A DNA stretch of 64,000 bases from Arcanobacterium ihumii. GTDB lineage: Bacteria; Actinomycetota; Actinomycetes; Actinomycetales; Actinomycetaceae. The stretch covers positions 558,001 through 622,000 of the forward strand of contig NZ_UWOS01000001.1 in assembly GCF_900604515.1 (NCBI RefSeq), in the 5' to 3' direction. Shown here piece by piece: positions 57,498 to 64,000 of this stretch. The position numbers were made by a program, and so were the translations under genes. Under the pieces are notes generated by a model, which had not been told where the DNA came from, searched no databases, and saw only the letters and a list, made by a program, of their open reading frames with translations. Each line of letters begins with the position of its first letter. The stretch's first letter is position 1.

Positions 57498-58661
57498 TCA
57501 CAAACCTGGACTATGCACACCGGCAAAGCGTTTCGATAGGTCTTCTAGGTAGTCACGGCGTTTAACGACGTCAAGCCATTTGTGTGGGATCGATTCGGCG
57601 CCATACGCAATGCCCGCTGCTGCGCCCACGATCGCCGCGTAAGTATCGGTGTCGCCACCGAAGCGGACGGCGGTGCGGATAGCTTCGGGGTACGACGTCG
57701 TATGCAACAGCGAGTATAACGCGATTTCGAGGGTATCGACCACGTACGCCGACGCCGTGAAGTCCGCAGGAGTGATCGACACAAACTCAGGACTGAAGAT
57801 TTTTGAATGCGCCGCGAGTGCCTCCTGCCATTGTGGATCGTCTGGGCGCCAGTCGCTGTATGGGAGGGCGACGGCGCGCTGGTACGCCCGCGTGACGTCA
57901 TGACCAGCGTGTATCCCCCAGAGAAATTCGCAGAAAATAATGCACGAGAGCTGGGAGATCGCGTGTCCGTGCGTAATTTGCGAAGCTTGGGAGACGACGT
58001 TCCATCTGTGGTCGCGGGAAGGCGGCGGTTCATGGGAAAGGATTTGTTCGCGAGAGGGGTTGGGTGCGGTGGCTTCGGCACGCTCGCTCGTTGGCACATG
58101 TTCACCTGTTGCTGTGTGTCCACAGCTTGCCCCGTAGCCACCGGCAGATGCATGCCCACCGGCTGCCAAGTGAAGAGCGATCGGGAAAATGCGCATGAGG
58201 GCGCCGTTGCCGTTGTCGCGCACACGTGTTGCACCGGATTCAAGGGCGGGCGCGCCTCCTTGGAAGCGACCGAGCGCCATCATCACCGTCATTCCCAATC
58301 CGAATGGACGCTCGATGGAGCAGTATTTTCTTTCCTCCCACCAGGCTAAGAATTGGCGCATGATATCGGTGAGGTCGAGGCGGCCCTGGTGGGAAATAAT
58401 CGATTCCATTGTGGCTACAGCCATGGAGGTGTCGTCACTCCAAGCGCCAGCAGGTACCGCTCGGCGCGGCCGAGAATTGGCTGAATCAACCTCACTCGCA
58501 GCATACATGGCGTCGAGCGGGTGTTTGGCGACTTGGTCCGCGTCCAGAAACTCGAATGGCACGCCAAAGGCATCGCCTATTGCTGCACCGAGCAGGGCAG
58601 ACGTTATCTGGGAAGCAGTGAGTGACCCGATGCCGGACGCGCTGGTTGTGTGTATACCCAT
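57498..58661 (-). CDS. ADP-ribosylglycohydrolase family protein
   Basis: This 387-residue protein has the family metal-binding motifs: GDAFGVPFEF near the N terminus, WSDDTSMAVATM in the first third and GGDTDTYAAIVGAAAGIAYG at the C-terminal end. It removes ADP-ribose from proteins or small molecules. Residues about 165-215 are an inserted His/Gly/Ser/Pro-rich low-complexity segment not typical of the family. The gene is GC-richer than its neighbours. The ATG has only a weak ribosome-binding site. Confidence 0.88.
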   Translation of the reverse strand: MGIHTTSASGIGSLTASQITSALLGAAIGDAFGVPFEFLDADQVAKHPLDAMYAASEVDSANSRPRRAVPAGAWSDDTSMAVATMESIISHQGRLDLTDIMRQFLAWWEERKYCSIERPFGLGMTVMMALGRFQGGAPALESGATRVRDNGNGALMRIFPIALHLAAGGHASAGGYGASCGHTATGEHVPTSERAEATAPNPSREQILSHEPPPSRDHRWNVVSQASQITHGHAISQLSCIIFCEFLWGIHAGHDVTRAYQRAVALPYSDWRPDDPQWQEALAAHSKIFSPEFVSITPADFTASAYVVDTLEIALYSLLHTTSYPEAIRTAVRFGGDTDTYAAIVGAAAGIAYGAESIPHKWLDVVKRRDYLEDLSKRFAGVHSPGL

Positions 58662-58900: not shown

Positions 58901-59638
58901 TCAATTGGTAGCATCTCCCTCAACTTGACGCTCTGCTAATTTGAGATCACAGCCCAAGGTTTTTGCACGATCTCCCAATACTCCTTGTTTTGCCGCAACT
59001 GCAATCAACTCGCGCCAAGTCTCCAAACTTTCAGCTATTTTGGCGGTCAGAGTTTGGATATACTCCTCACGACGGCACTCACGCGAGATGTACCGATGTA
59101 AGTGATCCTGCAAACTTGGATCCATTTCTATCACCTTATTCTCAACCTTCTCCCAATAGTCTTTCGGACTTTCCTGTGTTTGAGGGTTGTCACCAAGCGC
59201 ATCAAGATAATAAAAACGTCCAGATTTCCCATAACGGTCAAGCGTGTCGAGAATCAAGGGCCACAAAGGATCCCTTTCGAGCTCGTGTAAGGCATCTTTA
59301 ACGTACTGAGGATGCGTTGCTTTGTTTATCCCTTCCTCAATTACTCGTCGTAGTGCGGCATCCATCTTTTTTAGATCATGACCATAATCTTTTTTGAGAA
59401 TTTTGGCAGGTATCCATTCACGATTCTTATCCAGATAGACATAACCAAGCGCCAACTTCAATAATTTTTCAACACCTATCGAGAGCAACGTCAGTACAGG
59501 CTCACGCGTAGTGTCAATAAAATCAGCCGATCTGAGCGTATGCATACCGTACTGCAATAAGCGTTTCGCAGAATCCAGTTCTTCAATCAGATAAAACGCC
59601 TGCTGCCTTGTCAATCTGTCGTTGTATAGATTGTTCAT
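58901..59638 (-). CDS. HEPN-like protein of unknown function next to helicase/methyltransferase genes
   Basis: This 245-residue, helix-rich protein is not recognised outright. The stretch PVLTLLSIGVEKLLKLALGY, then DYGHDLKKMDAALR, resembles HEPN proteins, where a helical bundle has a Glu-Lys-Leu pattern followed by GHDLK. The usual HEPN RNase motif R-x4-6-H is not clear. The ATG at 59638 follows AGGTGG. It is divergent from the SNF2 helicase gene, 317 bases apart, and may be part of the same defence island. Confidence 0.5.
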   Translation of the reverse strand: MNNLYNDRLTRQQAFYLIEELDSAKRLLQYGMHTLRSADFIDTTREPVLTLLSIGVEKLLKLALGYVYLDKNREWIPAKILKKDYGHDLKKMDAALRRVIEEGINKATHPQYVKDALHELERDPLWPLILDTLDRYGKSGRFYYLDALGDNPQTQESPKDYWEKVENKVIEMDPSLQDHLHRYISRECRREEYIQTLTAKIAESLETWRELIAVAAKQGVLGDRAKTLGCDLKLAERQVEGDATN

Positions 59639-59955
59639 AGATACACCACCTACCATCACTGATGTCTTTAAATCCGAAACTTTAGCCTAGATCATTAATA
59701 AATCTTGCGTTTATTTCTTGATCTCATCCTACTTATCGACTACGGAATATCGAACCACGTATTACTTTCGCTTTCCTTCACCTGCGAGTCTTCGAGGAAC
59801 TCTTCAAAAACCGAGATCCGTCAGTGACCTCAACATTCGCATACACTTAATCCAACAAATATTAATGATTACGTTTTCTTTTCGATCAAGAAAGAAATGT
59901 ACGTGCTCGAATATGTATAATTTTCAGTACGCCTTAGCACAACGAAGGAGCATCT
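59639..59955 (+). promoter_or_regulatory. Divergent promoter region of the helicase operon
   Basis: This 317-bp gap holds no gene. TATAAT at 59916-59921 is a strong -10, 35 bases before the GTG start of the helicase; a good -35 is not evident. AAGGAG at 59945-59950 is the ribosome-binding site. The rest shows no repeats that I can see. Confidence 0.5.
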
Positions 59956-62841
59956 GTGGGCAATGAGGCCAGCACCATTTCCCTGAATGATTATCAGGCA
60001 AAATATTTCGCTCACCAACTGGAACGTTCATATTCCAATGAACATGTTGGAAAACTTGCCGGCTTGCTTTTTGATGCACAAGTAGAACCAAAACCGCACC
60101 AAATCGACGCTGCTCTTTTCGCTCTGCAAACGCCATACATGAAGGGAATTATCCTAGCTGACGAAGTTGGCCTTGGTAAGACCATCGAAGCAGGAATCGT
60201 TATCAGCCAATTCTGGGCTGAACGTAAACGTCAAATATTGATTATTGCCCCCGCCAGCCTCCGCCAACAGTGGAAGCAGGAGCTGTGGGAAAAATTCATG
60301 CTCCCTGCGGAACTAATCGATCGTAAAACGAAAGATAAGCTTCGCAAACACGACCCTTCAGCTGATCCCACAGTATTTATCGTTTCGTACGAGTTCGCAA
60401 AATCAAACCAAGAAGCATTATTGCGTCACTGGGATATTATCGTCGCAGACGAAGCACACCGTCTGCGTAACTATTGGTCCGGTAACGCGAAGACGGCGAG
60501 CGCAATCTCTCAGGTTTTCCGTCAAGCTAGCAAAGTTGTATTACTTACCGCTACACCTCTCCAGAATCGCCTTGAGGAGCTTTACGGATTAGTTTCGACG
60601 TTCGATACCGAATTTTTCCATTCGCTTGACGCTTTTCGCGAGCGGTATATCAAAAACCGCTCACTAGTGGGCGGCGACGATCTCGCCGAACGAGTGCGCA
60701 CCATCGCGAAACGAACACTTCGCCGTGACGCTGAAAAGTATATCCGTTTCACTCAGCGCATTCCTATAACAGTGGAGTTTGAGCCATCAAACGATGAAAA
60801 ACGCCTCTATGAGCTCGTAGACTCCTACCTCCAGCGCGACGATCTATATGCATTCGCGAGTTCTCAACGATTCCTTTCTGCGACGATTATTCGCAAACGC
60901 CTCGGATCGTCAACCTACGCAGTTGCCCACACCCTGGAGAATATTGCGAACCGTTTACAATCGGAACTAGATGCTGGGCAGCTTCGCAACCGGCGTGGCA
61001 ACTTATTTGAAGATGAACAGTTCGATTTAACAAGTGACGAACTCGAAGAACTGGAAAACATCAACGCGCAACAAAACCCGTTTTCTGATCGTAACGTTCA
61101 GGAAGAAATCGAAGCAGAAATCAATGAGCTCCATAGCTACGCAGCACTGGCTCGATCCATAACCGTCAACCAAAAAGCAGTTCATGTACGCGACGCCCTA
61201 GAACAGGGTTTCGCCAAACTTCGTGAAATTGGCGCTCCAGAAAAAGCAATTATCTTTACCGATTCAACGGTGACTCAGGCCTATTTGGAACGGCATCTCA
61301 CTGAGATTGGCTATGGAGATGGCCTCGTGCTTTTCAACGGTACGAATAACTCTCCGCGAGCTAACCAGATTTACCGTGACTGGCTTGAAGAGAATGCTGA
61401 TACCGATCTCATTACTGGAAATCCTTCAGCTGATCGGCGTAAAGCTCTCGTGGATTACTTCCGTGATCATGGAAAAATTATGATCGCTACCGAGGCAGCG
61501 TCCGAAGGCGTAAACCTGCAGTTCGCCTCAATGCTCATCAACTACGATTTGCCGTGGAATCCTCAACGAGTTGAGCAACGCATTGGTCGCATCCACCGAT
61601 TCGGCCAGAAGTTCAATGTGGTGATTGCAAACTTCCTTAACAAGGGGAATGTCGCAGAGCAGCGAATTCTTGAGCTTCTTACTGAAAAGTTTCAACTGTT
61701 CAGCTCGGTATTCGGAGCTTCCGATGAGATCCTCGGCAGTATTGAAGACGGCTTAGATATGGAACGAAAAGTCGCCGCTATTCTTGCCGAATTTAAGACG
61801 GCGGAAGAGATCAGTGCAGCGTTCGACCAGCTAGAAGCACAATATGCAAGCGAAATTGACGCAGAGATGAAGAAGGCGAAGACGAAAGTCTTCGATCACC
61901 TCGATCCACACGTGCAAGATCGTTTGAAGAATTACGACAAGCAGTCGGACCAAGTGCTCAATCAATTCGAGCGCTTACTGATGAGTCTCACACGCTACGA
62001 ACTCGCCGATTACGCGACTTTTGATTCTGATACACACAATTTCTCCCTAAACCGAGCACCCGTTGAGGGAGTAAAAGTTGGCAAATATTTCTTCAAATCC
62101 AGCCCTCTTCCCCAGGCTCACCAGTATCGTTACGCAAGCCCGCTCGCTCGATACGTCATTGACGCAGCTTTGCAGAGCCATACCCCAGAGGCGGAAATTG
62201 AGTTCAGTATTAGCAAGTCTCCTCGCGCTACCAAGTCCGTGCGCGAGCTTGCTGGTCAATCGGGAATCTTGACGGTTCGGAAGCTAACCTTTTCGATATT
62301 CGCCCAAGGTCAAGATCTATCTGAGTCGTACCTTATTTCCGCTGGCCGAACTACCCACGGGAAGAAACTCGACAGTGAATACGTGGATGACATCTTAAAT
62401 TTGACAGCAGTTCAGACGGTAGCCATCAGTAACGTCGATATAGCCTCTTTAAGCAAAGCACTAGAAAAACAGGCCGAATCCCTCTATAAAGAAGTCAAGC
62501 ATCGCAATTCGCGTTATTACTCTGAGCAAGAAGACGTCACCTATCGCAATCTACAAGACCGCAAAGCTGAGCATGAGAAGCTCATGCGAGAGCTCGAAGC
62601 CAAAATCAAGCAGCTACGTAAGGACGCAAAAAATACCGACGACGCACTAGAGAGCTTGAAGCTCAAACGAAAAGCAGATCGTCTCGAGGATCAGATCGAC
62701 GACGCCGAAGATTCTTTCCGCGAGCAAAAACGTCAACTCCGCAAAGAGTCGAGAAACTACCTCGATTCTGTGGAAGACTCTTTGAAGGGTACCGAAACAC
62801 AGGAAGAACTGTTTACGATTCGTTGGCGAATCGTAAAGTAA
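59956..62841 (+). CDS. SNF2/RapA-type helicase of a type III R-M-like module
   Basis: This 961-residue protein has an SNF2 ATPase close to RapA/HepA. Walker A is LADEVGLGKT (about 67-76), the DEAH box is VADEAHRLRN (about 162-171), and motif VI is QRIGRIHRFGQ (about 535-548). Residues about 850-940 form a charged coiled coil. The GTG start follows AAGGAG. Forty-one bases after its stop a Mod-type methyltransferase begins. Similar RapA-like helicases lie beside type III Mod and Res genes in other bacteria and are thought to serve defence; the exact system type cannot be named here. Confidence 0.88.
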   Translation: MGNEASTISLNDYQAKYFAHQLERSYSNEHVGKLAGLLFDAQVEPKPHQIDAALFALQTPYMKGIILADEVGLGKTIEAGIVISQFWAERKRQILIIAPASLRQQWKQELWEKFMLPAELIDRKTKDKLRKHDPSADPTVFIVSYEFAKSNQEALLRHWDIIVADEAHRLRNYWSGNAKTASAISQVFRQASKVVLLTATPLQNRLEELYGLVSTFDTEFFHSLDAFRERYIKNRSLVGGDDLAERVRTIAKRTLRRDAEKYIRFTQRIPITVEFEPSNDEKRLYELVDSYLQRDDLYAFASSQRFLSATIIRKRLGSSTYAVAHTLENIANRLQSELDAGQLRNRRGNLFEDEQFDLTSDELEELENINAQQNPFSDRNVQEEIEAEINELHSYAALARSITVNQKAVHVRDALEQGFAKLREIGAPEKAIIFTDSTVTQAYLERHLTEIGYGDGLVLFNGTNNSPRANQIYRDWLEENADTDLITGNPSADRRKALVDYFRDHGKIMIATEAASEGVNLQFASMLINYDLPWNPQRVEQRIGRIHRFGQKFNVVIANFLNKGNVAEQRILELLTEKFQLFSSVFGASDEILGSIEDGLDMERKVAAILAEFKTAEEISAAFDQLEAQYASEIDAEMKKAKTKVFDHLDPHVQDRLKNYDKQSDQVLNQFERLLMSLTRYELADYATFDSDTHNFSLNRAPVEGVKVGKYFFKSSPLPQAHQYRYASPLARYVIDAALQSHTPEAEIEFSISKSPRATKSVRELAGQSGILTVRKLTFSIFAQGQDLSESYLISAGRTTHGKKLDSEYVDDILNLTAVQTVAISNVDIASLSKALEKQAESLYKEVKHRNSRYYSEQEDVTYRNLQDRKAEHEKLMRELEAKIKQLRKDAKNTDDALESLKLKRKADRLEDQIDDAEDSFREQKRQLRKESRNYLDSVEDSLKGTETQEELFTIRWRIVK

Positions 62842-62882
62842 ATTTCATTTAGAACTTAAATATTGGTAACAGGAGATTAACT

Positions 62883-64000
62883 ATGACAGACGATTTTGAC
62901 GTTTACGAAGAAACGGACGACATTAACGAGATTTCACCCGCTTCGCCAGATTTTCGCACCGAACTTGCAGAGCAAATTGCCGATCTCGCTCCCGAAGCAG
63001 TAGCGGACGGAAAAATCGACTTCGAAAAGTTAAAAGAACTTCTTAGCGACGACGTATCTAGTTCCCCTGAGCGCTTTGGTCTATTCTGGCCAGGGAAGAA
63101 GCAAGCGATTCGCACAGCTCAGACTCCCACTACTGCCACACTTCAGCCCGACTTCGAGAACTCCAAGAATTGGGATACCACTCAGAACGTGTTTATCGAG
63201 GGCGACAACCTCGAAGTACTCAAAGTTCTTCAGAACCACTACTACGGCAAAATCAAAATGATTTACATTGATCCGCCGTATAACACGGGCGAAGATTTCG
63301 TTTACAAAGATGATTTCCGTGACGGCATGAAGAATTATCTTGAGTGGACTGAACAGGTAAACGGCGAAGGCAAGAAAGTATCCAGCAACTCAGAAGCTGA
63401 AGGACGATATCACTCCAATTGGCTCAATATGATGTATCCGCGCCTCAAGCTTGCGCGAAATTTACTCACCGATGATGGAGTCATTTTTATCTCCATTGAC
63501 GATCACGAACAAGCTCAGCTAAGAAAGCTATGCGACGAAATATTCGGTGAAAACTGTTATGTTGCAACGTTTCCTTGGAGAAAGCGTACGGCAAAATCTG
63601 ACGTTCCTTTCGGAATCTCTCAAGACTTTGAATACATTCTCTGCTATGCGAAACAAAACTATTTAGCCGGAGTGGAATCTGACCAAGGAAAGTATTATGA
63701 AACTGAGGATTTCCCAGGAAGACCTTGGCGCTATCACGATTTAACCAAGCAAACCTCTGCCGAAGAACGTCCGAAAAGCTTCTTCACGATAGTGAATCCT
63801 AAAAATGGAGAAGAATTTCCAGCAAATCCAAATCGCACGTGGGCAATCACCCATGAAACGCTCGAACATTACCTTTTGAATCACCGAATAATCTTCCCCA
63901 ACGACTACGACTTTTTAAAAATAACCAGACCAGTGCTTAGGTATTGGAAAGAAGACGATATCAAAAAACGAGGAGATTCATTTGGCTACAAGCCTGTGAG
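62883..64000 (+). CDS. Type III Mod-like site-specific DNA adenine methyltransferase, N-terminal part
   Basis: The frame from ATG at 62883 (behind AGGAG) stays open to the window edge, giving 372 residues of a longer protein. It has the beta-class order of type III Mod enzymes: motif I-like FIEGDNLEVLKVLQ (about 104-117), then IYIDPPYNTGEDFVY with catalytic DPPY at 130-133, and a following target-recognition region. It methylates N6 of adenine in a specific site. A Res helicase-nuclease gene should follow outside the window. Confidence 0.9.
   Translation, partial: MTDDFDVYEETDDINEISPASPDFRTELAEQIADLAPEAVADGKIDFEKLKELLSDDVSSSPERFGLFWPGKKQAIRTAQTPTTATLQPDFENSKNWDTTQNVFIEGDNLEVLKVLQNHYYGKIKMIYIDPPYNTGEDFVYKDDFRDGMKNYLEWTEQVNGEGKKVSSNSEAEGRYHSNWLNMMYPRLKLARNLLTDDGVIFISIDDHEQAQLRKLCDEIFGENCYVATFPWRKRTAKSDVPFGISQDFEYILCYAKQNYLAGVESDQGKYYETEDFPGRPWRYHDLTKQTSAEERPKSFFTIVNPKNGEEFPANPNRTWAITHETLEHYLLNHRIIFPNDYDFLKITRPVLRYWKEDDIKKRGDSFGYKPV

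What the first reader, a model, noticed from the sequence alone, without database searches (positions are those of the whole stretch)
58901..64000. Probable defence module: HEPN-like protein, RapA-type helicase and type III Mod
A divergently placed helical protein with HEPN-like features, a 961-residue SNF2/RapA helicase with coiled-coil tail, and a Mod methyltransferase with DPPYNTG lie together at the window edge. Type III systems usually have only mod and res; a RapA-like helicase added in front is known as a recurrent neighbour (sometimes with a DUF4391 gene between), but no DUF4391-like gene lies between helicase and mod here, and the HEPN-like gene in its place has no settled role. This may be a variant anti-phage system.
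Basis: partly seen in the sequence, partly recalled or inferred. Interest (0 to 1): 0.75.

Follow-up and report, generated by a model that had tools for sequence, protein, structure and literature searches.

The report
Three-gene restriction system with swappable slot
The window ends in a bacterial DNA-restriction system that seems to carry a motor protein as a regular third partner and, right behind its cutting gene, a spot where quite different anti-virus genes are swapped in and out; the supposed RNA-cutting gene in front of it is probably not part of it.

Summary
The genes are real, but the module is drawn wrongly. Past the window edge mod is followed by res, a RloC-like gene and abiH. The RapA-like SNF2 gene is a regular third gene of this type III clade: in 297 genomes of the order, the 10 with close Res are exactly the 10 with close SNF2; 15 with distant Res have none at E 1e-60. 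Of 61 named SNF2 loci, 49 hold Mod and Res. The HEPN-like gene looks separate: 1 of 80 SNF2 loci has it, a sister species has it without the trio, and Rx4-6H is not conserved. Behind res lies a swap slot: in 21 of 38 loci an ORF starts at the res stop, and 20 of these 21 match PADLOC defence models of about ten kinds; SNF2-less type III loci give 2 of 15. Against Arcanobacterium bovis, homology ends within 2 bases of the res stop. Mod's frame is broken at a C8 tract; phase variation is plausible, not shown. New variant of a known kind; all activities are inferred.

The parts
59956..62841 (+). RapA-like SNF2 translocase, regular third gene of this type III clade
62883..64000 (+). mod, first piece; continues past the window to L002:5535 and, in another frame, L002:5445-6329; frame break at a C8 tract L002:5512-5519
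   Evidence: N6_N4_Mtase 74 and 32 bits in the two pieces; MTase_III model; sequence
   Evidence: The other members lie outside the window: res L002:6326-9307, RloC-like L002:9307-11745, abiH L002:11845-12957

Best explanation
[quoted passage not shown] Mod would recognise and methylate host sites; Res, which keeps its own helicase and endonuclease domains, would cut unmethylated DNA. The SNF2 protein most likely moves along DNA beside the complex, clearing bound proteins or helping sites communicate, as is proposed for BrxHII-, DrmD- and ArmA-type helicases next to other methyltransferases (role inferred). The gene behind res varies between species; here it is a RloC-like anticodon nuclease followed by AbiH, which would act as a second line when restriction is blocked or DNA is broken (inferred from PrrC and RloC). 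Shown: linkage, co-occurrence, boundaries of the unit, kinds of cargo, motifs. Inferred: every activity, and that SNF2 is a subunit.
For: Same 10 of 297 genomes hold close Res (59% or more) and close SNF2 (58% or more); 15 with Res at 35-44% lack SNF2 at E 1e-60. 49 of 61 named loci hold Mod and Res in the fetched stretch, 42 as SNF2-Mod-Res and 7 as Mod-Res-SNF2. In 19 more distant loci 17 have a Mod-like and 16 a Res-like gene. Slot: 21 of 38 loci have an ORF of 200 aa or more starting at -20..+60 of the res stop, 20 of the 21 match PADLOC. Of 11 pairs of loci with res ends 93% or more identical, 10 lose homology within 17 nt of the stop. RloC features met in P0004.
Against: No experiment; linkage could be joint travel in defence islands. 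L087 has SNF2 without Mod or Res, L039 likewise for a distant SNF2. 17 of the 38 loci have no ORF at the res stop. The control for the slot is small, with short flanks, and relatedness is not corrected. Several PADLOC hits of AAA_15 cargo are generic ATPase hits. RloC at type I or III loci was already reported (8 of 72).
Confidence: 0.7

Rival explanations
1. An ordinary two-gene type III system; SNF2 is an independent anti-phage gene that merely travels with it, and the genes behind res are ordinary defence-island neighbours without functional coupling.
For: Res keeps its own helicase and nuclease domains. Defence genes cluster anyway. The unit is bounded and shared between genera, so joint transfer alone could keep the genes together.
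Against: Co-occurrence is 10 of 10 against 0 of 15, across many genera and two gene orders; SNF2 also accompanies a different Mod/Res lineage. 13 of the 21 ORFs at the slot have a start codon overlapping the res stop.
Confidence: 0.25
2. A member of DISARM or a BREX-related system that has lost parts, its SNF2 gene being DrmD or BrxHII.
For: DrmD models are the best PADLOC and NCBIfam hits of the helicase (584.7 and 578 bits).
Against: 578 bits against a DrmD cut-off of 950; none of the other six cluster proteins matches a DISARM core model; Mod and Res are type III.
Confidence: 0.05
3. For the broken mod only: a sequencing error in the C8 run, or plain decay, rather than phase variation.
For: Homopolymers are error-prone; the tract is absent from A. 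bovis Mod; codon shuffles predict as many such runs in mod as are seen; no second isolate of the species is held.
Against: C/G runs of 7 or more: 6 in mod (111.6 kb) and 0 in SNF2 plus res (360 kb) over 67 loci; those of 8 or more are in Arcanobacterium, two Corynebacterium and Schaalia loci; L097 is also frame-broken at its C8. A C9 lies in an HsdS-like gene of this genome.
Confidence: 0.45

Closest known systems
Type III restriction-modification (EcoP15I kind, Mod2Res1; PMC4490356, abstract seen in search listing)
   Same: Mod with DPPYNTG and type III model matches; Res with SF2 helicase and endonuclease domain; adjacent genes
   Different: A SNF2 gene in front (or behind) as regular partner, and an exchangeable gene behind res
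RapA-like helicase plus methyltransferase systems: DISARM class I, ARMADA, BREX type 3 and BREX-related (PMC12458937, PMC9142583, PMC12839542; passages read)
   Same: A RapA/Snf2-family helicase beside an N6-adenine methyltransferase; PMC12839542 describes BrxHII as RapA-like in domain order
   Different: Type III Mod and Res here; the helicase fails the DrmD cut-off; no DISARM or BREX core gene in the cluster
RloC and PrrC anticodon nucleases (PMC2610378, PMC3710099; passages read)
   Same: ABC ATPase motifs, CxxC zinc-hook motif, C-terminal R-X3-E-X50/52-H; position at a restriction locus
   Different: Encoded right behind a SNF2-type III trio; function untested
Phase-variable type III mod genes (phasevarions; e.g. 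PMC8125046, PMC2667262; abstracts in search listing only)
   Same: A simple repeat in the mod frame, with a frame break at it
   Different: Actinomycete host, SNF2-containing system; neither tract variation nor methylation was tested

Membership tests
Type III restriction-modification | Mod: type III N6-adenine methyltransferase | tested here: met
   Best models MTase_III PDLC03634, 412.7 and 219.8 bits in the two pieces; DPPYNTG. The reading frame is broken in this assembly.
Type III restriction-modification | Res: SF2 helicase plus endonuclease domain, next to mod | tested here: met
   REase_III 901.5 bits; ResIII and RE_endonuc; position
DISARM | DrmD equivalog score | tested here: not met
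   578 bits, cut-off 950
DISARM | Separate drmA, drmB core genes in the locus | tested here: not met
   None among the other six cluster proteins scanned; the wider window was not scanned by family
RapA (RNA polymerase recycling) | NCBIfam RapA equivalog score | tested here: not met
   165 bits, cut-off 576
RapA (RNA polymerase recycling) | RapA-like fold along the protein | tested here: met
RloC (P0004) | 658-897 aa with ABC ATPase motifs and CxxC zinc hook | tested here: met
   812 aa; GLNGSGKS 47, LSTGE 539, IVLDDP 572, ILTH 612, CPHC 302; definition from PMC2610378
RloC (P0004) | C-terminal R-X3-E-X36-52-H, often S before H | tested here: met
   R685, E689, H740 or H742 (X50 or X52), S before each
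RloC (P0004) | Anticodon nuclease activity | not testable with these tools
   -
HEPN superfamily (P0001) | Conserved Rx4-6H active-site motif | tested here: not met
   Present in the 3 Arcanobacterium sequences at one place, not at that place in the 4 others. Some HEPN families lack it.
HEPN superfamily (P0001) | HEPN family profile or fold | tested here: inconclusive
   No family match; model unusable
AbiH (P0005) | Pfam AbiH above curated cut-off | tested here: met
   73.4 bits, cut-off 30.9
Phase-variable mod | Simple repeat in the frame with a frame break at it | tested here: met
   C8 at L002:5512-5519
Phase-variable mod | Tract length varies among cells or isolates | not tested
   Collections used hold one genome per species

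The most novel reading that the evidence does not exclude
The SNF2-Mod-Res trio is a mobile sensing chassis: the SNF2 protein, or the whole complex, senses blocked or failed restriction and licenses whatever effector is coupled behind res (RloC, CBASS, DRT4, Hachiman, Dodola and others), so that one restriction system serves as a common trigger for interchangeable second-line defences, and a contingency tract in mod switches the assembly on and off.
Probability: 0.15. Interest if true: 0.85.

Novelty: new variant of a known kind. Interest (0 to 1): 0.6.

Why it matters
If SNF2 is a true subunit, type III restriction has a three-component branch that links it to the helicase-methyltransferase systems DISARM, ARMADA and BREX. 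The slot is a natural experiment: res genes up to 95% identical over their last 1.5 kb between different named genera (Agrococcus and Tessaracoccus) carry different defence genes behind them, so one can ask directly whether the cargo depends on the restriction system. It also gives a search rule: read the gene that starts at the res stop codon to find defence genes.

Tried and rejected
HEPN gene as a module member: rejected by distribution; HEPN label unconfirmed. DISARM and housekeeping RapA: rejected on scores and context. DUF4391 between helicase and mod: none here; one paper in the library holds that term, in a gene-enrichment table of an Actinomyces study. Sequence relatives of P0004 in the PDB: none at E 0.01. 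No fold search was made with the poor P0001 model.

Own errors mended on the way. A first reading that genes behind res start at -13 was an artefact: the conserved Trp codon near the Res end makes a GTG; starts were recomputed. My ORF picking hid Mod or Res behind antisense ORFs and gave 46 of 61; tblastn gave 49. One search read only part of the loci and was redone.

Rows outside the counts. Of the 61 named loci with SNF2 at 54% or more, 12 lack Mod and/or Res of this clade: L095, L096, L098, L108, L112, L117, L118 are cut by contig ends; L094, L101, L109 have another Mod and a ResIII-like gene (profile-checked in L109 only); L062 has an interrupted mod; L087 has neither. L105, in the tract count, has an odd Mod ORF. 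One search shows 7 runs in Mod ORFs, not 6, because the C8 here lies in both overlapping frames. One search kept the best 80 of 141 relatives. Three distant SNF2 hits of the order sample (39-41%) are not among the 10; two lie beside weak Mod and Res matches and one does not.

Literature. Ten searches: among the papers listed (10-20 per call, of up to 5,381 found) I saw no title or abstract start that describes a SNF2 helicase as a component of type III restriction. Only open-licence papers are held. In a 2025 restriction review (PMC12707154, passages seen) 'SNF2' occurs 0 times.

Full report
What is there. The window is G000:C4:558001-622000 of a 2.0-Mb genome. Beyond the edge come the rest of mod in another frame, res, an AAA_13 ATPase gene whose ATG overlaps the res stop by one base, and abiH.

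The unit moves and is bounded. Over 43 loci, 214 pairs are at least 78% identical in a stretch that covers most of the last 1.5 kb of res. Homology ends within 30 nt of the stop codon in 169, 31-46 nt before it in 40, and runs on in 5, which share cargo. Of the 11 pairs at 93% or more, 10 end within 17 nt of the stop and one, with the same cargo, runs on; they include Agrococcus-Tessaracoccus (95.3%) and Rothia-Kocuria (93.4%). On the other side, over 57 segments and 175 pairs, 143 end between -30 and +60 of the SNF2 start, 4 between -150 and -31, and 28 further upstream. Between this genome and A. bovis homology (94%) ends 2 bases before the end of the res stop codon and resumes 5.6 kb later here and 4.3 kb later there, so the cargo between was exchanged.

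The slot holds defence genes. Of 38 named loci with at least 400 nt behind res, 21 have an ORF of 200 aa or more that starts between -20 and +60 of the stop. 20 of the 21 match a PADLOC model at 1e-5 or better: Drt4 (L059), CBASS cyclases of two model families (L069, L119), Dodola DolA (L071, L079, L114), HamA (L077), QatA (L100), Old (L073), AAA_15 proteins with AriA/Old/GajA-type hits (L060, L074, L075; generic ATPase hits), Ppl-like (L064, L080, L107), AAA_13 PDC-S06 (L067, L081, L116), GmrSD/HEC-06 (L093), Tmn (L061). L063 matches none. Of seven searched genes that start 75 nt or more behind res (L035, L070, L072, L086, L089, L090, L092), two match. As a control, 15 type III loci of SNF2-less genomes have 6 such ORFs, 2 of which match. 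20 of 38 against 2 of 15 gives Fisher p 0.013; the two sets were sampled differently, three control loci have under 600 nt behind res, and relatedness is not corrected.

The cargo here. P0004 has the features by which RloC was defined (PMC2610378, passages): 812 aa, ABC ATPase motifs, CPHC, and R685-X3-E689-X50/52-H with serine before histidine. [quoted passage not shown] So a HEPN-type RNase is probably present, but as cargo behind res, not as P0001. RloC at type I or III loci was already noted for 8 of 72 cases, so the pairing alone is not new. In the genus, SNF2 is in 2, P0001 in 3 and P0004 in 1 of 10 genomes.

P0001. Relatives are in 7 of 297 genomes of the order and 8 of 396 of the phylum, own genome counted in both, and on one viral contig. 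In G109 it lies beside the same flank gene, with phage-like genes (my reading) on its other side and without SNF2 or Res. Of 80 SNF2 loci only A. bovis has it.

Mod tract. Over 67 actinomycete loci, C/G runs of 7 or more number 6 in mod, 0 in SNF2 and 0 in res. If they fell by length, six of six in mod has chance 1.7e-4, and four of four for runs of 8 or more 3e-3. Against my reading: codon shuffles expect about 5 runs of 7 or more in each of the three genes, so SNF2 and res look purged while mod is not enriched. L097 also breaks frame at a C8. In this genome I merge the 23 matches into 14 tracts of 8 or more: besides mod, one lies in an HsdS-like frame, one at a split permease-like gene and one at a gene start; the other ten have no listed ORF over them. 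Mod of A. bovis is alike at both ends and unlike in the middle, as expected of an exchanged recognition domain.

Verdict. This is a type III restriction variant with a regular RapA-like helicase and an exchangeable defence slot. Subunit status, activities and phase switching remain to be shown.

Noticed in passing
L049:670-1848 (-), tract 1258-1266: A C9 tract lies inside a gene that reads like a type I specificity subunit HsdS (name from my reading, no family search); possibly a second phase-variable restriction gene of this genome.
   Followed up: no
L053:1274-1281 and L055:1237-1246: A C8 tract at a split permease-like gene and a C10 tract at the start of a gene; further candidate contingency tracts.
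   Followed up: no
L024:5131-15121: In sister species G109 the P0001 gene lies between phage-like genes and the flank gene seen here at window 57498-58661, with Abi_2-like frames nearby: a variable spot of the genus (names from reading).
   Followed up: partly
L173:3654-4478: A relative of P0001 on a viral contig among phage-like genes; the family may be phage- or element-borne.
   Followed up: no
L070:9134-10666: A gene that reads like a large serine recombinase starts 97 nt behind res in Kocuria rhizophila; could bear on how cargo enters the slot (name recalled).
   Followed up: no
L109:5274-12874 (also L094, L101): A third lineage: another type III Mod model (PDLC03645), a ResIII-like gene with weak REase_III hits, then a close SNF2.
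   Followed up: partly
   Followed up: partly
L175:6232-16247: SNF2, IS256 transposase, Abi-family, methyltransferase and helicase genes in a row on a conjugative Salmonella plasmid.
   Followed up: no
L002:13213-14628 (-): A PIN-like toxin frame and a partner frame of 304 aa without a Pfam match behind abiH (PIN name from reading).
   Followed up: no
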